From positions 62,001 through 126,000 of the forward strand of contig QHTK01000042.1 in the NCBI GenBank assembly GCA_003220795.1: DNA of 64,000 bases, in the 5' to 3' direction. The notes beneath the pieces are model-generated. The model searched no databases and was not told where the DNA came from. It worked only from the letters and a program-made list of their open reading frames with translations. Below, in pieces: positions 38,763-63,230 of the stretch (positions within the stretch are counted from its first letter, which is position 1; each line of letters begins with the position of its first letter). This DNA is from Gemmatimonadota bacterium (GTDB taxonomy: Bacteria; Gemmatimonadota; Gemmatimonadetes; Gemmatimonadales; GWC2-71-9). A program made the position numbers and the translations under genes.

Positions 38763-39611
38763 TCATGGGCAGCTTGGGCTCGCGCCGCCGACCTTGTTGC
38801 CTCCGCGGCCGCGATTGCTCACGCCGCCCACGAACGTCTGCCGCTGCCGCCCGAGCGGCGACAGGGAGTTGAGCGGGGAGATCCCCGTGGATGCGGTCCC
38901 GAGACTCACGGCCAGGCCCCAGCGCGGGGCCTGGCCCGCGAGGCGGTGCGTCACGTCGACCCTGAGATCGAGCGGTCCGCGGACCGCGTAGCTCAAGCCG
39001 CCGCCCATCTCCCGGTCCGCCGTAGTCGTGTCCGCACCGCCGACCTCGCCGCCCACCGAGAGGCTCAGCGTCCAGCGCGGTGCCACGTCCCAGTCCCCGT
39101 CCAGGTCGAACCAGGTCGCGTCCGGCTGGTCGAGGGACGAAAGCGTAATGGCCCCGGCGAAGCTCCGGCTCGCGTCGGCCGACAGGTGCACCGCCTCGGC
39201 AGGGGCGATCCCCACCCCGAGATTCATGCCGACACTCGCCTGGCCGTTCCCCAACCCGCAGGCGGCCCGGCCGGTCGGCAGCGTCACGATGACGCTCGCT
39301 CCGAGCTCGGGACGGAACGGAGCGCCCCACTGTTTCGACGCTTCGAGCGCGAGCGGCAAGTCCCCGAATCCCGAGGTGGTGGTCGAGCCTGCGGTCGAGC
39401 GCACGAGCGTCGGCGCGGCGCCGAACCTGAGCCAGCCCAGCGCCCGGTACTCGATCACCCCGGAGAGCGCCCCGAGCGACGTCGAGTCGGTGAGCTGGGC
39501 CGTCGCCGCGCGCACGCCGCCCGTCCAAGGAGACGGTTTCGAGCCCTGCGCCTGTGCCCTACCCGCGAGCAGCACCAGCAGCGCGCCGAGCGCGAACGGC
39601 CGGGATGGCAT
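38763..39611 (-). CDS. Outer-membrane beta-barrel-like protein
   Basis: ATG 39611 shares one base with the stop of the upstream triple-fusion gene. The 282-residue protein has a signal peptide ending in 'GRAQAQG' and then alternating beta strands typical of a small barrel ('SGVIEYRALGWLRFGAAPTLV', 'ELGASVIVTLPTGRA', 'ASVGMNLGVGIAP', 'WTLSLSVGGEVGG', 'GGLSYAVRGPLDLRVDVTHRL'). The last 40 residues are Ser/Gly-rich. No substrate can be named. Coupling to the GH18-CE4-GT2 gene suggests that it lets that enzyme's polymer through the outer membrane, much as PgaA serves PgaB/PgaC. Confidence 0.75.
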   Translation of the reverse strand: MPSRPFALGALLVLLAGRAQAQGSKPSPWTGGVRAATAQLTDSTSLGALSGVIEYRALGWLRFGAAPTLVRSTAGSTTTSGFGDLPLALEASKQWGAPFRPELGASVIVTLPTGRAACGLGNGQASVGMNLGVGIAPAEAVHLSADASRSFAGAITLSSLDQPDATWFDLDGDWDVAPRWTLSLSVGGEVGGADTTTADREMGGGLSYAVRGPLDLRVDVTHRLAGQAPRWGLAVSLGTASTGISPLNSLSPLGRQRQTFVGGVSNRGRGGNKVGGASPSCP

Positions 39612-42600
39612 CAGGCCGCCCGCGGCAGCTCGACCGTGCCCTTGCGCACGAGCTTGCCCCAACCGCGCGCCCGGCCTTGGGCCGCCGCCACGACCGCTCT
39701 TACCACGGCCCAATAGAGCACCTGGCGGTACACGAACCGCTGTAGCAGCACCAGCCACGACAGCCCCCTTTCTTCGCCCGGCTCCATCAGCAACGCCGCG
39801 ATCCCTGCGAACCAGTCCACCGCAAGAAACGCGAGATAATACATCAGCACCTGCTCCAGGCTTTGCATCGCGTACTCCGCCCCGTGCTGGAGCTTGTTCA
39901 GGTAGACAGTGACGAGCGACCACCCGAACAGCAGATCCGCCACCGGTGCTAGGAACGGGAACACGAGTTGAAACACCCAGACGTTGGGCAGCGCCACGAA
40001 GCCGAGCGCACCATGATGGCGGCGGAACAGCGCGCCGCGGTGCTTCCAGGCGCATTGCAGCGTCCCGAAGCTCCAGCGGAACCGCTGGCGTGACAACCCT
40101 TGCAGCGTGTCCGGGGCCTCGGTATAGGCGACCGCGTTATCGGCGTAGGCGATGCGCCAACCGCGCGCCAGCAACGCCAGCGTCAAGTCCTGGTCCTCTG
40201 CCATGGTCTGGTCGCTGAAGCCGCCCGCGTCCAGCACCAGCTGGCGACGCCATGCCCCCACGGCTCCCGGCACCACCGTGATGCAGTTCAAGAGCGCAAA
40301 GGCGCGGCGGTCGAGATTCTGGCTCGTCACGTACTCGACGGCCTGCCACCGCGTCACGAGGTTGATGCGGTTCCCCACCTTGGCGTTGCCCGCCACCGCC
40401 CCCACACGCGCGTCGGCGAGCGGCGCCACCAGCGCCTCAATCGCCCCGGGGGCGAGCAGCGTGTCGGCATCCACGGCCACGACGATCTCGCCCGTCGCCT
40501 GCGCGACCCCGAGGTTCAAGGCGCTCGCCTTGCCGCCGTTCGGCTGGCGGACCAGGCGCACACCGGGATGGCCGCGGAATGCCGCCGCCACCACCTGGGC
40601 GGTGCGGTCCGGTGAGCCATCGTCCACCACGATCACTTCGAGCCCCGCGTAGCGCTGGGCGAGCAGCGACTCGACGGTGCGCACCACGACCTGCTCCTCG
40701 TCATATGCCGGGACCACCACGCTGACGCGGGGGTGATAGGCGCCGTCCACCACACGCCGCGCGAAGCGGCGCTGCCGTCGCTGAGCCAGGGCGAGGGCGA
40801 GCAGGACCACCAAGCGGCCCCCCCCGAGCACCATCGCGACGAGGAACAGCGTACGCAGACCCAGCTCGATCCATCCGACCAGTGAGAACGACGTGAGCTC
40901 CACGAAGCGGCGCAGCGCGCTGTGGGGCGGCAGCGGCGCCATGGCCTGGTCACGGGTGAGCCCGGCGAGCGCGGTGACCGTAGTGAGCGCGTAGCCCCGC
41001 GCGCGCAGCGAGTCGATGAGGGGCCCGAGCGCCGCCACCGTCTGCGCCCGGTTGCCGCCGCCGTCGTGCAGCAGGATGACGTGGCCGCGATCGAGCTGAG
41101 CCAGGCTTTCCCGGATGATCTTGGCGACGCCCGGCTCGAGCCAGTCGCCCGGGTCGTCGCGCAGCCCGACGGTGACGTAGCCGAGCGACTGGGCCACGGC
41201 GATGGGCCCGAGCTCGTCCGAGGTGGTCGGCTCGGCGTCCCCGAAATAGGGGGGGCGGAACAACGCGGTGCGACGGTTCGTGACCGCCTCGATCAGCCGC
41301 TCGGTGGCGGACAGCTCGTAGCGCGTGAGCCGCGGGCCGACGAGCGCGAGATTGGGGTGCGTGAACGTATGATTGCCGATCTCGTGCCCCTCACGCAACA
41401 TCCGGCGCAACAGCTCGGGATGGAGCTCGGCATTCTCCCCGATGACGAAAAAGGTCGCGGTGGCGTCGCGGGACTCGAGCGTGTCGAGGACGAGCGGTGT
41501 CCAGGTGGCATCGGGCCCGTCGTCGAACGTCAGCGCGACGGCGTGCTTCTTCCGGCCATAGCGCTCGATCACATAGGTGGACGGCGTCTGCAGCACCGAG
41601 TCCACCACGATCCGGCCCGTAGCGGTGTCGGTCCGCACCACGCGCCGGCCGAGCGTGGGCTCCGCCACCATGCGCAGGATCTCGCCCGTGCCGATGAACT
41701 GCACGTCGTAGCCGATGCGGATCGTGTCCAATGCCTGAGGCGTCGCTCGGAGTCCGCCGCGGTCGAGCACCGTCCAGAGCGACGGATCCTCGGATCCGAG
41801 CCGCCACACGCCCACGCCCGCGACGCCGAGCGGGCCGGTGCGGAGGACCTGGTTGTAGGCGGTCGCGGCGTCCAAGAACCAGACGATGTGGCTCGTCGAG
41901 TCGGGGTCGTCCCACGCGAGGGTGGGGTTCAGCGCGGCGCCGTCCATCGCGGGCGCACGCCCGTGGTCGCGCGCCAGCTGCATGACGTCCTGGAACGTCA
42001 GCTCGGTCGCGGACTCCGCCGTGTCGGACCACTCGTAGCCGTACTGGCCCAGGCTCACGATCACCTTGGCCGGCGGCACGCGCGCCAGCACGCGGGCGAG
42101 ATGGTGTGCGAACCACCCCTCGCTCGCGATCGGGCCCGGGTCGTCCGACGGATCGTGCTCGTCGTACAACATGAGGAAGATGTAGTCGTCGATCGCCGCG
42201 TACCGCTCCACCGGCCAGCTCGCGTCGTCGCCCGGGACCGCCTGGGTGACGAGCCGGCCGTCGCGCGCCAGGCGTCGTTTGAGCGTCCCCAGGAACCGGA
42301 GCAGCGCCGGGTGGACGGCGCGCGGCAGGTTCTCGAAGTCGATCGTGACGCCGGCCAAGTCGTAGTGCGCCAGCGTGTCCGCGATGGTCGTGACGGCGCG
42401 GCGCCAGAGCCGGGGGTGGGCGAGCAGCCTGGTTACGGCGAGCGAGTCGAAATCGTCACCCGTGAAGTTGGTGATGAGGGCGAGCACGTGGACCGGCTGC
42501 TTGGCGCGCGCGACGACCGCGAGCGCACGGCGGTCCACCTGGAACCGCACGGGCAAGGTGTCGACCCCGCGGCCCACGAAGCCCCACTCCGCCACGACCC

Positions 42601-43054
42601 AGTCGAGCGCGTCGATGTGGCTGCGGAGCGACGCGAGGGAGTTGTCGTCCCAGTTGACGTAGAAGCCGGTGACGATCGGCGCGTCGGCCGCGGCGGCTCC
42701 GGCGCCGGGCCGGGCGATGGGCATCTGCGCGTAGCGCAGCGCCGGCGGCGCCGGGTGCTCCTTCAGGTACGCGAACAGCCGCTGGCGGGTCGCCAGCCGC
42801 TCCCGCTCGGCGCGCACCGAGATCGGATGCTTCACCACGGTGCGTGGCACGCGAGGGGCGTGGCCCAGCGAGTCCGCGGCCGTCTGGATTAGGGGCAGCC
42901 TGGGGAGCAGCGGGGGCACGATCACACCCGTGAGCACGAACAGGAATAGCACGGTGCTCAGCACGCCGGCGACGAGCGCGCCCGCGCGCAGCCGCGCCCA
43001 GCGGCGTCCGGTGGGATCGAGAAAAGTCGGCAATGGATGCTGTGCGCGCGTCAC
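39611..43054 (-). CDS. GH18 / polysaccharide deacetylase / GT2 triple-fusion membrane protein
   Basis: GTG 43054 with GGGGAG about ten bases upstream; earlier starts would cross a terminator hairpin at 43080-43115. The 1147-residue chain has an N-terminal membrane helix (about 25-45), a GH18-like barrel (about 125-430, with 'GVTIDFENL' holding the D-x-E pair), a CE4 deacetylase (about 500-700: 'ALTFDDGPD', 'GNHTFTHPN', 'RPPYFGD', 'ILLHDGG'), a helix pair, a processive GT2 (about 770-1000: 'VVVPAYDEEQ', 'VVDDGSPDRT', 'VDADT', 'EDQDLTLAL', 'QRFRWS') and C-terminal helices. The GT2 should polymerise an amino sugar inside while outer domains deacetylate and cut it: a one-chain counterpart of PgaC plus PgaB. 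Confidence 0.93.
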   Translation of the reverse strand: MTRAQHPLPTFLDPTGRRWARLRAGALVAGVLSTVLFLFVLTGVIVPPLLPRLPLIQTAADSLGHAPRVPRTVVKHPISVRAERERLATRQRLFAYLKEHPAPPALRYAQMPIARPGAGAAAADAPIVTGFYVNWDDNSLASLRSHIDALDWVVAEWGFVGRGVDTLPVRFQVDRRALAVVARAKQPVHVLALITNFTGDDFDSLAVTRLLAHPRLWRRAVTTIADTLAHYDLAGVTIDFENLPRAVHPALLRFLGTLKRRLARDGRLVTQAVPGDDASWPVERYAAIDDYIFLMLYDEHDPSDDPGPIASEGWFAHHLARVLARVPPAKVIVSLGQYGYEWSDTAESATELTFQDVMQLARDHGRAPAMDGAALNPTLAWDDPDSTSHIVWFLDAATAYNQVLRTGPLGVAGVGVWRLGSEDPSLWTVLDRGGLRATPQALDTIRIGYDVQFIGTGEILRMVAEPTLGRRVVRTDTATGRIVVDSVLQTPSTYVIERYGRKKHAVALTFDDGPDATWTPLVLDTLESRDATATFFVIGENAELHPELLRRMLREGHEIGNHTFTHPNLALVGPRLTRYELSATERLIEAVTNRRTALFRPPYFGDAEPTTSDELGPIAVAQSLGYVTVGLRDDPGDWLEPGVAKIIRESLAQLDRGHVILLHDGGGNRAQTVAALGPLIDSLRARGYALTTVTALAGLTRDQAMAPLPPHSALRRFVELTSFSLVGWIELGLRTLFLVAMVLGGGRLVVLLALALAQRRQRRFARRVVDGAYHPRVSVVVPAYDEEQVVVRTVESLLAQRYAGLEVIVVDDGSPDRTAQVVAAAFRGHPGVRLVRQPNGGKASALNLGVAQATGEIVVAVDADTLLAPGAIEALVAPLADARVGAVAGNAKVGNRINLVTRWQAVEYVTSQNLDRRAFALLNCITVVPGAVGAWRRQLVLDAGGFSDQTMAEDQDLTLALLARGWRIAYADNAVAYTEAPDTLQGLSRQRFRWSFGTLQCAWKHRGALFRRHHGALGFVALPNVWVFQLVFPFLAPVADLLFGWSLVTVYLNKLQHGAEYAMQSLEQVLMYYLAFLAVDWFAGIAALLMEPGEERGLSWLVLLQRFVYRQVLYWAVVRAVVAAAQGRARGWGKLVRKGTVELPRAA

Positions 43055-43075
43055 GATGCTCGGGCTCCCCGTATC

Positions 43076-43115
43076 AAAAGGGGACCCCCCTGTTCCCGGA
43101 TGCCGGAGGGTCCCC
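43076..43115 (-). terminator. Rho-independent terminator after the sigma-factor/Spy-like operon
   Basis: GGGGACCC (minus strand, 43115-43108) pairs with GGGTCCCC (43087-43080), with an inner CCGG/CCGG stem in the loop, and is followed by TTTT (43079-43076). It lies about 75 bases after the stop at 43189 and just before GTG 43054. Confidence 0.7.
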
Positions 43116-43188
43116 GTGCTCTGGTCAAGATAAAGACTCGGGGAGAGGGCGCGACGTAACTCCGTGCTAGCCCGGGAGGTGATGCAGG

Positions 43189-43629
43189 TCACTCACGGGG
43201 CATCCCCTTGGCCGCGGCGAGCTTGTCCTGCTGTTCTGCCGAGAGCGCATTCTTGATCTGGATCAGAAGCGTGATGTGCGCGCGTTTGATCTCGCGCTCC
43301 ACGCCCAGCACCTCGTCCACCTGCGCGAGCGCGGCGGCCTGATCGACTGCCGGTTTCCCGAGTAACGTGGCGAGCCGCTGCGACTGCTCCTGCATGCGCC
43401 ACTGCAGGTCCACCACCTTGGCCTGGAAGTCCTGAATCGCCTTGGTGATGCTGGCGCGCTGCTCGGCGCGGAGCCCGATATCCTGCTGGTGCTGCATCAC
43501 CAGCTCCGGGGGGAAGAGCACGCGCGCGATCGGGTCATCGGGAGGTTGCTGCGGCTGCTGCTGGGCTTGCCCCGCGGCGACGGCGACCAGGACGAGGGTC
43601 ACAACGAGATGTAGCGGGAGCGTCTTCAC
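43189..43629 (-). CDS. Spy/CpxP-like periplasmic protein
   Basis: ATG 43629 overlaps the upstream stop (ATGA). A 146-residue protein with a signal peptide ('LVVTLVLVAVAAGQAQ') and a mature part of amphipathic helices: 'ELVMQHQQDIGLRAEQRASITKAIQDF', a Gln-rich middle, 'LGVEREIKRAHITLLIQIKNALSAEQQDKL'. This is the LTxxQ-type layout of Spy/CpxP chaperone and metal-sensing proteins, although the literal LTxxQ is 'LSAEQ' here. In the same operon as an ECF sigma factor and a membrane anti-sigma-like protein, it may report envelope stress to them. Confidence 0.8.
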   Translation of the reverse strand: MKTLPLHLVVTLVLVAVAAGQAQQQPQQPPDDPIARVLFPPELVMQHQQDIGLRAEQRASITKAIQDFQAKVVDLQWRMQEQSQRLATLLGKPAVDQAAALAQVDEVLGVEREIKRAHITLLIQIKNALSAEQQDKLAAAKGMPRE

Positions 43630-53167: not shown

Positions 53168-56100
53168 ATGTTCCCGGAAGACGAGAGCCTCGCCGCAGCG
53201 CTAGCCGACCGCTACCGCCTGGTGCGCCCCCTGGGCCAGGGGGGCATGGCCACGGTCCATCTCGCCGAGGACCTCAAGCACCACCGCAAGGTCGCCGTCA
53301 AGGTGCTGCGACCCGAGCTCGCTACGTCGATCGGGCTCGAGCGCTTCTCGCGCGAGATCGAGATCGCGGCCGCGCTCAGTCACCCCCACATCCTCGCCGT
53401 GCACGACTCCGGGGGAGCGGCCGGCGTGCTCTACTACGTGATGCCCTACGTCGAGGGGGAGTCGTTGCGCGATCGGCTGTCGCGCGAGAGCCGGCTGCCC
53501 CTCGAGGAAGCACTGCGGATCACACGGGAAGTGGCGGACGCGCTGGGCTACGCACACCACCGGGGGCTGATCCATCGCGACATCAAGCCGGAGAACATCC
53601 TGCTCCAGGCGGGCCACGCCGTGGTGGCGGACTTCGGGATTGCGCGGGCGATCACCGCCGCCGCTGCGGGGGGCACGCTGGGCAGGACGCTGACGCTGCC
53701 CGGCATGCCGATCGGGACGCCGGACTACATGAGTCCCGAGCAAGCGCTCGGAGAGCGGGAGCTGGACGGGCGGTGCGATCAATACGCGCTGGCGTGCGTG
53801 CTGTACGAGATGCTGGCGGCGCGGCCGCCGTTCACCGGGCCCTCCATGGAGCGCGTCTTGTTCCAGCATCTCACGGTGCCGCCGCTGCGGATCACGGAGC
53901 TCCAAGCCGATGTGCCGAAGCCCGTGGCCGCCGCGTTGGCCCGTGCCCTGGCCAAGGCGCCCGCCGACCGGTTCAGCGACATGGCGGCGTTTGTCGCCGC
54001 CCTGAGTGCGCCCGCCGGCCCGGAGGGCGCACCGCCCCCTGCCCAACTCACGTCGTTCATCGGCCGCGAGCGCGAGACGGCGGCCGTCCAGGAGCTGCTC
54101 GCCGGCACGCGGCTGCTCACCCTCACCGGGGCGGGCGGCAGCGGCAAGACCCGTCTCGCCCTCGAGGTGGCGAGCCGCGTGGGCGCACGCTACCCGGACG
54201 GTGTCGCCTGGGTCGAGCTCGCCCCCTTGTCGAATCCCGAGCTCGTCCCGCACCACGTCGCCGACGCGCTGGGCGTGCGCCGCGACGGCATCCGATCGGC
54301 CGGGGAGGCCCTGCTCGAGGCGCTGCGCGATTGGGACGCGCTGCTGGTGCTGGACAACTGCGAGCATCTGGTCGAGGCCTGCGCCCGGCTGGCGGACTCG
54401 TTGCTGAAAAGTTGCCCGCGGCTCCGCATCATGGCCACGAGCCGCGAGGCGCTGGGGATCGGCGGCGAGCGCGCCTGGCTGGTGCCGGCGCTCACGCTCC
54501 CGGAGGCCGGCAGGCCGGTCACGCGCGCCGTGGCGGCCGCGAGCGAGGCGATCCGGTTGTTCGTCGAGCGGACCCAGGCGGTGCGGCCCTCGTTCGCGTT
54601 AGGCGACGAGAACGCGGCCGCGGTCGCGCAGATCTGCCGCCGCCTCGACGGGCTGCCCCTCGCCATCGAGCTGGCCGCCGCGCGGGCCCGCGTGCTCGAT
54701 CCCCAGCAGATCGCCGCCAGGCTGGACGACGTGTTCGGGTTGCTCTCCTCGGGCAGCAGGACGGCCCTGCCGCGCCAGCGCACCCTGCGCGGCGCGATCG
54801 AGTGGAGCCACGCGCTGCTCACCGAGCCGGAGCAGATTCTGTTCCGGCGGCTGGCGGTATTCACCGGGGGGTTCACGATCGACGCGGCAGAGGCTGTAGC
54901 TGCGGGAGGGGCGATCGCCGTTCTCGACCTACTGGACCTGCTGAGCGGGTTGGTGGACAAGTCGCTCGTGTTGCTCGAGACCGAGGCGCTCGAGGCGCGG
55001 TATCGCATGCTCGAGACGATGCGGCAGTTCGCGCGGGAGCGGCTCGACGCGGCGGGTGAGGCGGGCGAGCTGGGGCGCCGCCACGCGCAGTTTTTCCTCG
55101 CCCGCGCGGAGAGTGCGGAGCGGTTCCTCTCAAACCAGTCCGAGGGGTGGCAGGAGCGGCTGGCGGAGGACCTCGGGAACTTGCGGGCGGCCGCCGACTG
55201 GTTCGAGCAGGATCCCGCCGGCGGAGAGGACTCGCTGCGGCTCGCGACCGCACTGCACTGGTTCTGGTTCGGGCTGGGGCACTATCGGGAAGCGCGCCGG
55301 CGCCTCGAGGCGGCACTCGCGCGGACCGGCGGCGGGCGCACCCGGGCGCGGGGACGCGCGCTCTCCTCGCTCGTGACGTATCGGGTGCTCCAGGGCGAGC
55401 GGGTCGAGCTCCGTCCGCTGGCCGAGGAGAGCGCGGACATTCTGCGGGAAACGGCCGGCGCGTCGGCGGATCTCGTGTGCGCGCTCGTCGGGCTGGGGCA
55501 GTCCCGTCTGCTTGCGGGCGATCTGGAACCCGCGGCCGGCGTCCTGGCGGAGGCCGTCGCCCTGGCGCGGACCGTGAGCCCGCGGTACTGGATCACCTAC
55601 GCGCTGTACTGGCAGGGTGTCGTGGCGCAGGCGCGCGGCGACTTCGCGGCGGCACGGGCGGCGTTCGACGAGGGGGTCACCCTCGGTCTCGAGGATGGCT
55701 TCAACCAGCCCATCGCGCACCTCGCCACGATGCGGGGCCGGCTCGCGCTCGCCGAGGGCGACAGCGAGGGCGCGCTCCGCTGGTTCGCCGTCGCGCTCAC
55801 GCCGCTCAAGCGGATGCAGAACCACTGGTCCACGATCATTCTGGCGGAAGACCTCGGCCGGATCGCGGCCGAGCGGGGCGAGCACGAGCGGGCCGCCCGG
55901 TTGCTCGGCGCCGTGGCCAACCTCCGCGAGGAAGCCGGGGCCGCCCCGCTGCCGCCAGAGCGCGAGGCCCTCGACCACCTGGCCGAGTCGGTCCGCGCCA
56001 ACCTCGGCGCCGCGGCGTTCGAGACGGCATTCCGGGCGGGGCACGCCCTGAGCCTGAGCCAGGCCCAGGACCTCGCCGAGACGATGGTAGGGAAGCCGGG

Positions 56101-56656
56101 GGCCGTGGCGCGCCCGGCCGTCCCCTCGGTGTTGCGAGTCAACGCCTTGGGCCCCGTCGAGATCTGGGTGGACGGCCAGCAACTCCCGGCCGCGGCATGG
56201 AGCGATGCTAAGGCGCGCGAGCTGCTCCTGTACCTCCTGTGTCACCCGGCGGGGCGCACACGCGACCAGATCGGGCTCGCGTTGTGGCGCGACGCCTCGC
56301 CCGCTCAGCTAAAGAACGATTTCCACGTCACGCTGCACCAGCTGCGCCGCACCCTGAGCCGGCCCGAGTGGATCGTGTTCGAGGAGGAACGTTACCGGAT
56401 CAACCCGCGCCTGGCGGTGGAGTTCGACGGCCTGCAGTTCGAGGCCGAGCTGCGGGCGGCACGAGCGGCGTTCGCCAAGACGGAGGACGCGGCGCCGCTC
56501 GCGCGCGCCCTGGCGCGCTACCGCGGCGACTTCCTCGAGGATGCAGGGGCGGAGGCAGGCGACTGGCACCTGGAGCACCGGGAGCGCTGGCAGCGGCTGT
56601 ACGTCGCGGGCCAGGAGGCCGTCACGACCTCGCGCCGGGTTCGGCCGGAGTCTTGA
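53168..56656 (+). CDS. Ser/Thr kinase - STAND ATPase - TPR - SARP-type regulator fusion
   Basis: ATG 53168 gives 1162 residues; the longer upstream frame is non-coding. Kinase about 15-285: 'LGQGGMATVHLA', Lys45 in 'VAVKVLRPEL', 'HRDIKPEN' (about 136), 'DFG' (155), 'GTPDYMSPEQ'. STAND/NB-ARC-like ATPase about 295-560: 'LTLTGAGGSGKTRLALE', 'LLVLDNCEHL', 'MATSREAL', 'GLPLAIELAAAR'. Helical TPR-like repeats about 620-930. The C-terminus (about 985-1155) is a winged-helix plus start of a BTAD domain ('VEIWVDGQQL', 'AKARELLLYLLCHPAGRT', 'LKNDFHVTLHQLRRTL', 'YRGDFLEDAG'), as in SARP/AfsR activators but at the opposite end and cut short. It appears to join signal input, ATP switch and DNA binding in one chain. 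Confidence 0.92.
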   Translation: MFPEDESLAAALADRYRLVRPLGQGGMATVHLAEDLKHHRKVAVKVLRPELATSIGLERFSREIEIAAALSHPHILAVHDSGGAAGVLYYVMPYVEGESLRDRLSRESRLPLEEALRITREVADALGYAHHRGLIHRDIKPENILLQAGHAVVADFGIARAITAAAAGGTLGRTLTLPGMPIGTPDYMSPEQALGERELDGRCDQYALACVLYEMLAARPPFTGPSMERVLFQHLTVPPLRITELQADVPKPVAAALARALAKAPADRFSDMAAFVAALSAPAGPEGAPPPAQLTSFIGRERETAAVQELLAGTRLLTLTGAGGSGKTRLALEVASRVGARYPDGVAWVELAPLSNPELVPHHVADALGVRRDGIRSAGEALLEALRDWDALLVLDNCEHLVEACARLADSLLKSCPRLRIMATSREALGIGGERAWLVPALTLPEAGRPVTRAVAAASEAIRLFVERTQAVRPSFALGDENAAAVAQICRRLDGLPLAIELAAARARVLDPQQIAARLDDVFGLLSSGSRTALPRQRTLRGAIEWSHALLTEPEQILFRRLAVFTGGFTIDAAEAVAAGGAIAVLDLLDLLSGLVDKSLVLLETEALEARYRMLETMRQFARERLDAAGEAGELGRRHAQFFLARAESAERFLSNQSEGWQERLAEDLGNLRAAADWFEQDPAGGEDSLRLATALHWFWFGLGHYREARRRLEAALARTGGGRTRARGRALSSLVTYRVLQGERVELRPLAEESADILRETAGASADLVCALVGLGQSRLLAGDLEPAAGVLAEAVALARTVSPRYWITYALYWQGVVAQARGDFAAARAAFDEGVTLGLEDGFNQPIAHLATMRGRLALAEGDSEGALRWFAVALTPLKRMQNHWSTIILAEDLGRIAAERGEHERAARLLGAVANLREEAGAAPLPPEREALDHLAESVRANLGAAAFETAFRAGHALSLSQAQDLAETMVGKPGAVARPAVPSVLRVNALGPVEIWVDGQQLPAAAWSDAKARELLLYLLCHPAGRTRDQIGLALWRDASPAQLKNDFHVTLHQLRRTLSRPEWIVFEEERYRINPRLAVEFDGLQFEAELRAARAAFAKTEDAAPLARALARYRGDFLEDAGAEAGDWHLEHRERWQRLYVAGQEAVTTSRRVRPES

Positions 56657-56704: not shown

Positions 56705-56977
56705 ATGCCAAAGTTCGTGATCGAGCGTCACATCCCGGGCCTGGGGAAGTTGACGCCTGCCGAGTTGAAGGCCATTTCGCTGAAATCAGTAGGCGTGCTC
56801 AGGGAGATGGGCCCGCAGATCCAGTGGCTGCACAGCTACGTCACCGAGGACAAGCTCTACTGCGTGTACCTGGCGCCGGACGAAGCTGCGGTGCGGGAGC
56901 ACGCCAGACGCGGCGGGTTTCCCGCCGACCGCGTGATGGCCGTGCGCCGGCTGATCGACCCGGGCACGGCCGAGTAG
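56705..56977 (+). CDS. DUF4242 (SCO4226-like, possible nickel-binding) protein
   Basis: A 90-residue ferredoxin-like-fold protein with the DUF4242 pattern: 'KFVIERHIPGLGKLTPAEL' at the start, 'IQWLHSYVTEDKLYCVYLAPDEAAVREHARRGGFPADRV' in the second half. The His of 'WLHSYV', Cys of 'LYCVY' and the final His are conserved in the family. A Streptomyces member binds nickel; the physiological role is unknown. It has its own promoter and a GGAGGG ribosome binding site, and converges with the kinase gene at 56990 (12-base gap). Confidence 0.9.
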   Translation: MPKFVIERHIPGLGKLTPAELKAISLKSVGVLREMGPQIQWLHSYVTEDKLYCVYLAPDEAAVREHARRGGFPADRVMAVRRLIDPGTAE

Positions 56978-56989
56978 CGGGATCGACGG

Positions 56990-59900
56990 TCAACCCGCGG
57001 TCCAGGTCAAGCCGTAATCGATCACGCGCTGCAGCGGCATAGTCGCGCCCTCTGTCCACACCTGCTGCGCCGCCGCGGGCCCCACGGCGGCGCGTGCCTG
57101 CGCCAGCAACCGCTCCAACTTCGGTCGTTCATCGGGCGGCAGGCGGGCGCCGAGCGCCTCGCGTAACGCCGCGGCGGCGCCGGCCAGCCGCAGCGCACGC
57201 TCCTGCTTGCCGTCGACCACCGCGGCGCACGCGAATTCCTCCAGCAACCGTGCGATCCCACGCCGGTAGCCCAGCTCGCCGAAAATCCCGATGCTCTCGC
57301 GATACCATGCCTCGGCGCTCTGACGATTGCCTTCGTCGCGCGTGAGGTGGCCGAGGTCCGCCAGCGAGCTGGCGATCCCCCAGCGGTCGTCCAGGGCGCG
57401 AAAGATCGCCAGCGCCTGCTCGCAGAATGCGCGCGCTGCGGGCCTGTCGCCCTGCTCGCGGGCGACCTGGCCCTGGTGATTCAGGCTCCAGGCGACGCCG
57501 GCCTCGTCGCCCAGCTCGCGGAAGATCGCGAGCGATTGCTCGTAGAGTGACCGCGCCCGCGGGCGATCGCCGCGGATCGTCGCAAGGCTCGCCAGGTTGC
57601 TGAGCGCACGCGCGACGGCCCCCCGGTCGCCCAGCCCTTCCCACGCCGCGAGACACTGTTCGAACAGCGACTGCGCTCGCGCATGGTCGCCTTCATCCAG
57701 CGCGGCCGCCGCCAGGGCGTTCCGGCACACGACGCTTCCCCACGGGTCGGCGCGCTCGTCGTAGATCGACAGGCCGTCCTCGACCAGCTCGCGGGCTGCC
57801 CCGTAGTCGCCTTGCTCGACGGCCAGGACGCCGGCGGCAAACAGCGCCCGCGCCCGCTCCTTCGTGCGCGCCCGTGCGTCCGGGAGCTCCAGTACCGTAA
57901 CCAGCCGCCGGCGGCCCTCCGCCAAGTGTTCACGGGCCTCCCAGTAGCGGAACAGCGCGGCCCCAAGCCGGAGCGCCCACTCGGCTCCGCCGATCGCCAC
58001 GAGCCAGTCGAGCGCCTGCCGGAAATTGTCGTGCTCCGCGTCGAACCGCGCCAGCCAGAGCGCGCGCTCCGATCCCGTGAAGGAAGCGTCGCCCTCCTCC
58101 GCCAGCACGAGGCAGTACGCGGCGTGGGCACGCCGGACCTCATTCCCCTCCCCGGACGCGTCGAGCTGTTCGATGGCGTATTCGCGAATCGTATCGAGCA
58201 TCGCGAAGCGCGCTTCGTCCGCGGTCCCCCCACTCTCGCGGAGCAGGCTCTGGCTCATCAGCGACCCGACCCCTTCGAGCACATCTAGCCCGAGATCGCG
58301 GCGCGCGTCGCAGACCGCTTCCGCCGCTTCCAGCGTGCAGCCGCCGGCGAACACCGCCAAGCGGCGGAACAAGGTCTGCTCGTGGGACGAGAGCAGGTCG
58401 TAACTCCAGTCGATCGCTGCCCGCAGGGTCTGCTGGCGGGCGGGCAGATCGCGCGCGCCGCCGGTGAGGAGCCGCAGGCGGCTCCGCAGGCGTGCGAGCA
58501 TCTCGCTGGGCGGCATGACGCGGACTCGCGCGGCCGCAAGCTCGAGCGCGAGGGGGAGACCGTCGAGTCGCGCGCAGATCTCGGCGATCGCGCGGGCGTT
58601 ATCGGGGGTCAGCGCGAAGTCGGAGCGCGTGGCCGTGGCCCGCTCCACGAAGAGCGCGACAGACGGACATGTGGAGAGCGAGACGGGATCCGCCGCGTCA
58701 CGGATGTCGGGCAGCGCCAGCGGCGGTACGGCGAACTCGTGCTCACCCGACAGGTTGAGCACGACGCGGCTGGTGGCCATCACTTTTAGGGTCGGGCACG
58801 CGGCGAGCAGGGACGCGATGTCGCCGGCGGCGTCGATGACATGCTCGAAGTTGTCGAGCAGCAGCAGGACCCGACCGTCGAGTGCGCGCACATGGTCCGC
58901 CAGCGCGTCGAGAACCGGACGAGCACCGATGTCCCGAACCTCGAGCGCCCGATTCACCGCGGACCAGACGAGAGCCGCGTCGTTGATGACCCCGAGCGCG
59001 ACGAAATACACGCCGCCCGTGAACTCGGGTGCCACTTCGACCGCCGCCTGCACCGCGAGGCGCGACTTCCCCGCGCCGCCCGGGCCCGTCAGCGTGACCA
59101 GCCGCACCGCGTCCCGTTGCAGCAGCGTCACGAGCGCGATCAACTCGGCGTCGCGCCCGATCAAGCGTGTCGGTGGCGCCGGCAGATTGTGCGAGCGGTG
59201 CGCCCGTGCCGTCCGCTCGAGGGCCGGCGCGGTGGGTTGGGCGAGGGCGGCAGCGAAGGCCGCCGCTGTGGGATACCGATCCGCCGGCGTCTTGGCGAGC
59301 GCGCGCTCTAACGCCTGGGCGACCTCGGGCGGAGTGCCGGGGCGCACGCCGGTCACGGCCGGCGGATCGGCGATGAGATGCTGGCGCACGATGCTCTCCG
59401 CCGTGGGGCCCACGAAGGGCGGCTGGCCGGCCAGCATCTCGTAGAGCATGCAACCCAGACTGTAGATGTCGCTCCGCCCATCCAGCTCTGTGCTCCCCAC
59501 GCCTTGCTCGGGGCTCATGTACAGGGGCGTTCCCACCGCGAGACCGGTCTCCGTCAGTTTGTCGCCAGCCGCCGCGTTGATCGCGCGGGCGATGCCAAAG
59601 TCCGACACGACGGCGTGACCCGATTCGAGGAGGATGTTCTCGGGCTTGATGTCGCGGTGCACCACGCCCTGGGCGTGGGCATAGCTCAGGGCATCCGCGA
59701 CCTCGCGCCCGATCTGCACGGCATCCTCCAGCGGCAGCTGTCGCTCGCGGGTGAGGCGGTCGCGCAGCGACTCCCCTTCGACGTACGGCATGACGTAGTA
59801 CAGGAAGCCCGCAGCCTCGCCCGAGTGGTGCAGCGGCAGGATATGTGGATGGGTGAGTCGGGCGGCGAGGTTGATCTCCCGGAGGAATCGCTCGGTGCCG

Positions 59901-60067
59901 AGAGACGCCGCGAGCTCCGGCCGCAGGACCTTCAACGCGACGGGGCGATCGTGCTTCACGTCGCGGGCGAGGTACACGATCGCCATACCCCCGTGACCGA
60001 GCTCGCGCTCGATCGCGTAGTGATCAGCGAGGGCGGCACAAAGGCGGTCCCGCTCATCTGCTTGCAT
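56990..60067 (-). CDS. Ser/Thr kinase - STAND ATPase - TPR signalling protein
   Basis: A 1025-residue protein from ATG 60067 with no ribosome binding site but a TTGTGA/TAGCTT promoter ending eight bases upstream. Kinase about 18-285: 'LGHGGMAIVYLA', 'VALKVLRPEL', 'HRDIKPEN', 'SDFGIA', 'GTPLYMSPEQ'. STAND ATPase about 300-560 with 'LTGPGGAGKSRLA' (about 325), 'LLLLDNFEHV', 'MATSRVVL', 'GLPLALELAAAR'. Then about ten TPR-type repeats ('ARSLYEQSLAIFRELGD', 'GVAWSLNHQGQVAREQGD') to the end. It is a sister of the protein at 53168 but lacks the SARP part. In MalT/AfsR-like switches, ATP binding and the TPR scaffold control output; here the output would be phosphorylation. Confidence 0.93.
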   Translation of the reverse strand: MQADERDRLCAALADHYAIERELGHGGMAIVYLARDVKHDRPVALKVLRPELAASLGTERFLREINLAARLTHPHILPLHHSGEAAGFLYYVMPYVEGESLRDRLTRERQLPLEDAVQIGREVADALSYAHAQGVVHRDIKPENILLESGHAVVSDFGIARAINAAAGDKLTETGLAVGTPLYMSPEQGVGSTELDGRSDIYSLGCMLYEMLAGQPPFVGPTAESIVRQHLIADPPAVTGVRPGTPPEVAQALERALAKTPADRYPTAAAFAAALAQPTAPALERTARAHRSHNLPAPPTRLIGRDAELIALVTLLQRDAVRLVTLTGPGGAGKSRLAVQAAVEVAPEFTGGVYFVALGVINDAALVWSAVNRALEVRDIGARPVLDALADHVRALDGRVLLLLDNFEHVIDAAGDIASLLAACPTLKVMATSRVVLNLSGEHEFAVPPLALPDIRDAADPVSLSTCPSVALFVERATATRSDFALTPDNARAIAEICARLDGLPLALELAAARVRVMPPSEMLARLRSRLRLLTGGARDLPARQQTLRAAIDWSYDLLSSHEQTLFRRLAVFAGGCTLEAAEAVCDARRDLGLDVLEGVGSLMSQSLLRESGGTADEARFAMLDTIREYAIEQLDASGEGNEVRRAHAAYCLVLAEEGDASFTGSERALWLARFDAEHDNFRQALDWLVAIGGAEWALRLGAALFRYWEAREHLAEGRRRLVTVLELPDARARTKERARALFAAGVLAVEQGDYGAARELVEDGLSIYDERADPWGSVVCRNALAAAALDEGDHARAQSLFEQCLAAWEGLGDRGAVARALSNLASLATIRGDRPRARSLYEQSLAIFRELGDEAGVAWSLNHQGQVAREQGDRPAARAFCEQALAIFRALDDRWGIASSLADLGHLTRDEGNRQSAEAWYRESIGIFGELGYRRGIARLLEEFACAAVVDGKQERALRLAGAAAALREALGARLPPDERPKLERLLAQARAAVGPAAAQQVWTEGATMPLQRVIDYGLTWTAG

Positions 60068-60149: not shown

Positions 60150-63230
<3,081 letters not shown>

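What the first reader, a model, noticed from the sequence alone, without database searches (positions are those of the whole stretch)
53168..56656. Kinase, STAND ATPase, TPR and SARP-type DNA-binding domain in one protein
The order kinase-ATPase-TPR-winged helix/BTAD reverses the AfsR order (SARP first) and adds a kinase. In Streptomyces, AfsK phosphorylates AfsR; here both partners appear in one chain, which could be a self-phosphorylating transcription factor.
Basis: partly seen in the sequence, partly recalled or inferred. Interest (0 to 1): 0.66.

Follow-up and report, generated by a model that had tools for sequence, protein, structure and literature searches.

The report
Kinase fused to AfsR-like gene regulator
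This soil bacterium (phylum Gemmatimonadota) encodes one large protein that joins a protein kinase, an ATP-driven molecular switch, a sensor-like repeat region and a DNA-binding domain that has lost the half of its partner domain used to grip RNA polymerase; it is a rare and probably working variant of known switch-type gene regulators.

Summary
Window 53168-56656 encodes a 1162-aa protein: Ser/Thr kinase (16-270), STAND/NB-ARC ATPase (295-620), TPR region (621-965) and a C-terminal SARP part (985-1162). The SARP part matches Pfam BTAD only below cut-off, but its predicted structure (pLDDT 92) matches AfsR (Z 16.6) and EmbR (Z 16.2).

Two corrections. (a) The reversed order, STAND-TPR-SARP, is not special: 44 of 52 related Gemmatimonadota SARP reading frames have it, none with a kinase. 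What is special is the kinase, plus loss of the second half of BTAD, which ends near AfsR residue 196 of 270. All four orthologues found share that truncation; the other 49 SARP frames are full length. (b) "AfsK and AfsR in one chain" is analogy, not homology: the kinase is a local PknB-type one, base-contacting residues differ, and published work says AfsK phosphorylation does not trigger AfsR.

The DNA-binding part is under purifying selection (dN/dS about 0.2). Kinase-STAND-TPR-LuxR in one chain already exists in Rhodococcus. Verdict: new variant of a known kind. Self-phosphorylation is plausible but untested. The kinase is seen fused in only two genomes, one of them interrupted by a frame slip.

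The parts
53168..56656 (+). whole gene, 1162 aa: kinase - STAND ATPase - TPR - truncated SARP
   Evidence: translation; GC3 about 0.9 in every part; N-terminus aligned with the orthologue in G014
53213..53977 (+). Ser/Thr kinase domain, aa 16-270; glycine loop GxGG, K45, HRD D138, DFG D155 read from the sequence
   Evidence: Pkinase E 1.9e-44; PknB chains E about 1e-59 in the PDB
54050..55027 (+). STAND (NB-ARC-like) nucleotide-binding oligomerisation domain, aa 295-620
   Evidence: AAA_22 6.7e-8 and NB-ARC 8.3e-7; falls among the NODs of kinase-less SARP proteins in a tree
54128..54151 (+). Walker A GAGGSGKT, aa 321-328; T328 corresponds to AfsR T337
   Evidence: sequence; AfsR T337 is the last residue of its Walker A (PMC10936776)
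55028..56062 (+). MalT-like TPR sensor region, aa 621-965
   Evidence: TPR_MalT 5.1e-8, TPR_2 2.5e-7; helical repeats in the predicted model
56129..56407 (+). OmpR-type winged helix (ODB), about aa 988-1080
   Evidence: predicted fold matches AfsR and EmbR, with OmpR/PhoB-type domains next; dN/dS about 0.2
56300..56356 (+). HTH loop end and recognition helix, aa 1045-1063 (PAQLKNDFHVTLHQLRRTL)
   Evidence: alignment to AfsR: P79, Q81 and R94 kept, K95 to R; R87, T88, S91 and R92 replaced by H, V, H and Q
56408..56635 (+). BTAD remnant, first three helices only, aa 1081-1156
   Evidence: BTAD profile positions 2-68 of 146; model helices H103-121, H125-131, H151-174 of the fragment; dN/dS 0.24-0.29

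Best explanation
It is a STAND-type signalling protein that kept the DNA-binding half of an ancestral Gemmatimonadota STAND-TPR-SARP regulator, gained an N-terminal Ser/Thr kinase from the genome's own kinase pool, and lost the second half of BTAD. Proposed working: a ligand or partner binds the TPR region; the ATPase switches from the ADP-bound closed form to the ATP-bound open form and the protein multimerises (as in MalT); this lines up winged helices for cooperative binding to direct-repeat DNA and brings kinase domains together so that they phosphorylate each other and perhaps the STAND and TPR parts, tuning the switch. Shown: domain content and order, intact catalytic and Walker motifs, predicted winged-helix fold, purifying selection on it, BTAD truncation in all four orthologues. 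Inferred: ligand control, multimerisation, DNA binding, trans-autophosphorylation and its effect.
For: Domain hits. Predicted C-terminal fold like AfsR and EmbR. The winged helix is as constrained as the rest: dN/dS 0.195-0.222 against three orthologues, compared with 0.13-0.21 for the NOD and 0.24-0.37 for the TPR. Tree of the NOD: P0001 groups with its orthologues (100) and then with kinase-less SARP proteins, far from the neighbouring kinase-STAND protein P0002, so the kinase was added to a SARP-type protein. Kinase tree: P0001's kinase lies among kinases of its own genome. The same logic with another DNA-binding domain exists: Rhodococcus kinase-NB-ARC-TPR-GerE. STAND mechanism from MalT (PMC4381067) and AfsR (PMC10936776).
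Against: No expression, phosphorylation or DNA-binding data. The kinase is seen with the SARP part only in the window and in G014, and G014's copy is broken by a frame slip near L041:4895; the copies in G016 and G017 run off their contigs. Loss of the second half of BTAD removes most of the sigma region 4 pocket known in AfsR, so activation of AfsR type is doubtful. No conserved gene neighbour was found that would name the target.
Confidence: 0.5

Rival explanations
1. The kinase is the true output and the DNA-binding part is a tether or a decaying leftover: the kinase has replaced BTAD as effector, so the protein works like PknK, phosphorylating other proteins when the STAND switch opens.
For: BTAD is cut in every member of the clade, including both members whose kinase is visible. 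In G414 a kinase-STAND-TPR protein without any SARP part sits inside the SARP clade of the NOD tree, so kinase gain with loss of the SARP part seems to have happened there independently. The neighbour P0002 has kinase-STAND-TPR and no DNA-binding domain. PknK is a STAND kinase acting on other regulators (PMC9045387).
Against: The winged helix shows no relaxed selection (dN/dS about 0.2) and keeps its predicted fold.
Confidence: 0.25
2. One reading: AfsK and AfsR merged, a transcription factor switched on by its own phosphorylation.
For: Kinase, STAND, TPR and SARP-type DNA-binding parts in one chain; the threonine phosphorylated in AfsR (T337, end of Walker A) is present as T328.
Against: The kinase is PknB-type, not AfsK. 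AfsK phosphorylation of AfsR was reported not to trigger activation and to raise ATPase activity (PMC10936776). The threonine of GKT is common in P-loops and says little.
Confidence: 0.15
3. The protein represses rather than activates: it binds DNA as a multimer but cannot recruit sigma because the sigma-contacting half of BTAD is gone.
For: In AfsR, BTA helices 3-7 seat sigma region 4, with pocket residues L211, E213, L243, E246, L247, V249 and R252 (PMC10936776), all beyond the point where P0001 ends (AfsR 196). The acidic sigma-contact residues E68, D71 and E77 of AfsR are Q, L and A here.
Against: The upstream AfsR protomer contacts sigma through the winged helix alone; OmpR-type regulators activate without BTAD (established knowledge).
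Confidence: 0.1

Closest known systems
Kinase-less STAND-TPR-SARP proteins of Gemmatimonadota
   Same: same NOD-TPR-winged helix-BTAD order, about 40-49% identity over about 870 aa, recognition helix N-x-FHVTLHxLRK largely shared
   Different: no kinase; full-length BTAD
AfsR (Streptomyces SARP-NOD-TPR regulator)
   Same: winged helix plus first BTA helices (Z 16.6), STAND ATPase, TPR
   Different: SARP is N-terminal and complete in AfsR; the kinase (AfsK) is a separate protein; base-contact residues T88 and R92 not kept
Rhodococcus opacus kinase-NB-ARC-TPR-GerE protein (WP_120662022.1), PknK-type
   Same: kinase, STAND, TPR and C-terminal DNA-binding domain in one chain; NOD about 48% identical
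   Different: LuxR-type helix-turn-helix instead of the SARP winged helix; kinase only distantly related
EmbR (M. tuberculosis)
   Same: winged helix and BTAD fold (Z 16.2)
   Different: winged helix and BTAD N-terminal, FHA domain, no STAND or kinase; phosphorylated in trans by other kinases (established knowledge)
MalT / LAL regulators
   Same: STAND ATPase, helical-repeat sensor, C-terminal DNA-binding domain (PMC4381067)
   Different: LuxR-type helix-turn-helix, no kinase

Membership tests
STAND signal-transduction ATPases | NB-ARC/NOD P-loop ATPase core with Walker A | tested here: met
   NB-ARC 28.9 bits for the fragment against cut-off 23.5; GAGGSGKT at 321-328
STAND signal-transduction ATPases | repeat-type sensor C-terminal to the NOD and effector domains at the ends | tested here: met
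   TPR 621-965; kinase at the N-terminus, winged helix at the C-terminus
STAND signal-transduction ATPases | inducer- and ATP-driven multimerisation | not testable with these tools
   needs purified protein
SARP (ODB plus BTAD) regulators | OmpR-type winged helix | tested here: met
   predicted fold
SARP (ODB plus BTAD) regulators | complete BTAD | tested here: not met
   18.4 bits, profile 2-68 of 146; model stops at AfsR residue 196
SARP (ODB plus BTAD) regulators | binding of tandem direct repeats | not testable with these tools
   needs DAP-seq or EMSA
AfsR orthologue | order SARP-NOD-TPR | tested here: not met
   order is kinase-NOD-TPR-SARP
AfsK orthologue (kinase part) | NCBIfam AfsK model NF053615 | tested here: not met
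   101 bits against cut-off 1300; better matches to PknB-type models
PknK-type STAND kinases | N-terminal Ser/Thr kinase followed by a MalT-like STAND module | tested here: met
   works like PknK, but the trees suggest an independent fusion
Active Hanks-type kinases | G-loop, VAIK Lys, HRD Asp, DFG Asp | tested here: met
   G23-x-G25-G26, K45, D138, D155 in the translation; activity itself not tested

The most novel reading that the evidence does not exclude
A promoter-anchored kinase: the protein binds DNA through its winged helix, has given up the sigma-gripping half of BTAD, and instead acts at the promoter by phosphorylating RNA polymerase, sigma or neighbouring regulators when the STAND switch opens, so that transcription is controlled by a DNA-targeted kinase rather than by direct sigma contact.
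Probability: 0.15. Interest if true: 0.75.

Novelty: new variant of a known kind. Interest (0 to 1): 0.45.

Why it matters
It is a natural fusion of a kinase and a SARP-type DNA-binding domain on one STAND switch, so the debated role of kinase phosphorylation in AfsR-type regulators could be tested within a single polypeptide. The matched loss of half of BTAD and gain of a kinase suggests that effector domains of STAND regulators are swapped, and the family gives close kinase-less relatives as controls. It also points to a sizeable family of reversed-order SARP regulators in Gemmatimonadota for which no description was found.

Tried and rejected
Frameshift or assembly error cutting BTAD: rejected. 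No BTAD sequence lies downstream in any frame and three orthologues end at the same place. Operon partner: the SCO4226-like gene downstream was not found beside any relative, and the orthologue neighbourhood read shows unrelated genes, so no conserved target was found. Promoter comparison with G014 gave only a chance match. Kinase next to SARP genes: seen in G089 (adjacent) and G158 (nearby, convergent) among about 50 loci, about what the high number of kinases would give by chance (estimated, not tested). Other long frames that might hide a kinase (G153, G162, G169, G198, G211, G291, G103, G380, G071, G270): no kinase domain found; the upstream parts that were read looked like non-coding GC-rich frame. 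Chloroflexi record VBIU01000207: its frame end is identical to that of Gemmatimonadetes isolate AG4, so it is judged a misplaced contig. C-terminal SARP order outside the phylum: the four plasmid relatives checked (Microvirga, Cupriavidus, Kovacikia, Deinococcus) all have SARP N-terminal; not exhaustive. Full-length structure prediction: mean pLDDT 75, kinase and NOD too uncertain to read domain contacts. Literature searches found no description of this architecture, but the library is open-access only.

Full report
What is there. Window 53168-56656 (+) is one open frame of 1162 aa, with GC3 near 0.9 through all four parts and a start that aligns with that of the orthologue in genome G014. Pfam gives a Ser/Thr kinase at 16-270 (1.9e-44), an NB-ARC/AAA ATPase at about 297-427 and MalT-like TPRs. 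The catalytic motifs (G23-x-G25-G26, K45, H136-R137-D138, D155-F-G) and Walker A (321-328) are intact by reading.

The C-terminal part. Sequence models alone are weak: BTAD 18.4 bits against a cut-off of 22.1, profile 2-68 of 146, and phmmer to AfsR 0.0043. With an alignment of 18 sequences the fragment 985-1162 is predicted at pLDDT 92.4. Its best matches are AfsR (8k60, Z 16.6, 167 aligned, AfsR 23-196) and EmbR (Z 16.2), clear of OmpR/PhoB-type domains at Z below 10. So the winged helix and first three BTAD helices are present, and the rest of BTAD (AfsR BTA runs 120-270; PMC10936776) is absent.

Truncation is real. No BTAD remnant follows in any frame. Orthologues in G016, G014 and G017 (73-77% identical in the C-terminal alignment) stop at the same place with unrelated tails. 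Among 52 other distinct SARP frames collected from the phylum, 49 are complete, and the only 3 cut ones are these orthologues; a profile search of 395 genomes shows the same split among its strong matches.

Origin. The order NOD-TPR-SARP is found in 44 of the 52 frames, so it is ordinary for this phylum. In the NOD tree the window protein and its orthologues form a clade (100) among kinase-less SARP proteins, and the neighbouring kinase-STAND-TPR protein P0002 lies far off. The kinase groups with kinases of the same genome, where 35 matches are listed, nearly all kinases. A second kinase-STAND-TPR protein, in G414, sits within the SARP clade, has a distant kinase and has no SARP part. The simplest reading is that kinases were joined to this STAND module more than once, each time with partial or full loss of the SARP part. 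This is inference from few cases; several deep forks of the tree are weak.

Is the DNA-binding part alive? Pairwise dN/dS for the winged helix is 0.195, 0.222 and 0.196 against three orthologues, like the NOD (0.13-0.21) and lower than the TPR (0.24-0.37). Of the AfsR DNA contacts, W74, P79, Q81 and R94 are kept and K95 is R; R87, T88, S91 and R92 are H, V, H and Q. By inference it should bind the DNA backbone in the same way but read another sequence.

How it may work. STAND proteins switch from ADP-closed to ATP-open and multimerise when the sensor binds an inducer (MalT, PMC4381067). In AfsR, ATP binding activates; AfsK phosphorylation was reported not to trigger activation and to raise ATPase activity (PMC10936776). 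By analogy, here opening would bring kinases together and permit trans-autophosphorylation, with phosphorylation tuning rather than starting the response. The absent helices carry most of the AfsR pocket for sigma region 4, so activation, if any, would rest on the winged helix or on the kinase.

Comparison. Kinase-STAND-TPR with a DNA-binding domain in one chain is not unprecedented: a Rhodococcus opacus protein annotated only as protein kinase has Pkinase, NB-ARC, TPR and a C-terminal GerE domain. PknK is a published STAND kinase (PMC4381067; PMC9045387). The SARP-type winged helix at the end of a kinase-STAND protein is what is new here, as far as the searches reach.

Limits. The genomes are fragmented assemblies; the related records with titles are metagenome-assembled. 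Kinase and SARP part are seen together only in the window and in G014, whose gene is interrupted by a frame slip. The phylum searches scored only the best few candidates per genome, so rarity is not proven. Nothing about function was measured.

Noticed in passing
window 56990-60067 (-) and 60150-63230 (+): Two more kinase genes beside the finding: a kinase-STAND-TPR protein without a DNA-binding domain (1025 aa) and a kinase-TPR protein (1026 aa); a cluster of three signalling kinases.
   Followed up: partly
window 56705-56977 (+): Small gene of the SCO4226-like nickel-responsive family (PF14026, 1.6e-27), 48 bases after the kinase-SARP gene on the same strand; not found beside relatives.
   Followed up: partly
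window 39611-43192 (-): Fusion of glycosyl hydrolase 18, polysaccharide deacetylase and family 2 glycosyltransferase in one 1193-aa protein.
   Followed up: no
L047:465-5750 (-) (genome G089): STAND-TPR-SARP gene followed within a few bases by a separate kinase gene on the same strand, 54% identical to the window's kinase: the same pair of parts as neighbours.
   Followed up: partly
L109:3009-6359 (genome G414): Kinase-STAND-TPR protein whose NOD falls inside the SARP-bearing clade but which has no SARP part; probably an independent kinase gain.
   Followed up: partly
L129 (VBIU01000207.1, labelled Chloroflexi CF_138): The SARP frame end is identical to the Gemmatimonadetes isolate AG4 contig (L113); probably a contig placed in the wrong metagenome bin.
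   Followed up: partly
L110:4190-6868 (-) (genome G177): Frame that looks like nucleotide cyclase-STAND-TPR (TLLFTDIEDSTRLWE motif): yet another effector on the same STAND module.
   Followed up: no
L041:4880-4990 (genome G014): Orthologue of the finding interrupted by a small deletion with frame slip between NOD and TPR; either a dead copy or an assembly error.
   Followed up: partly
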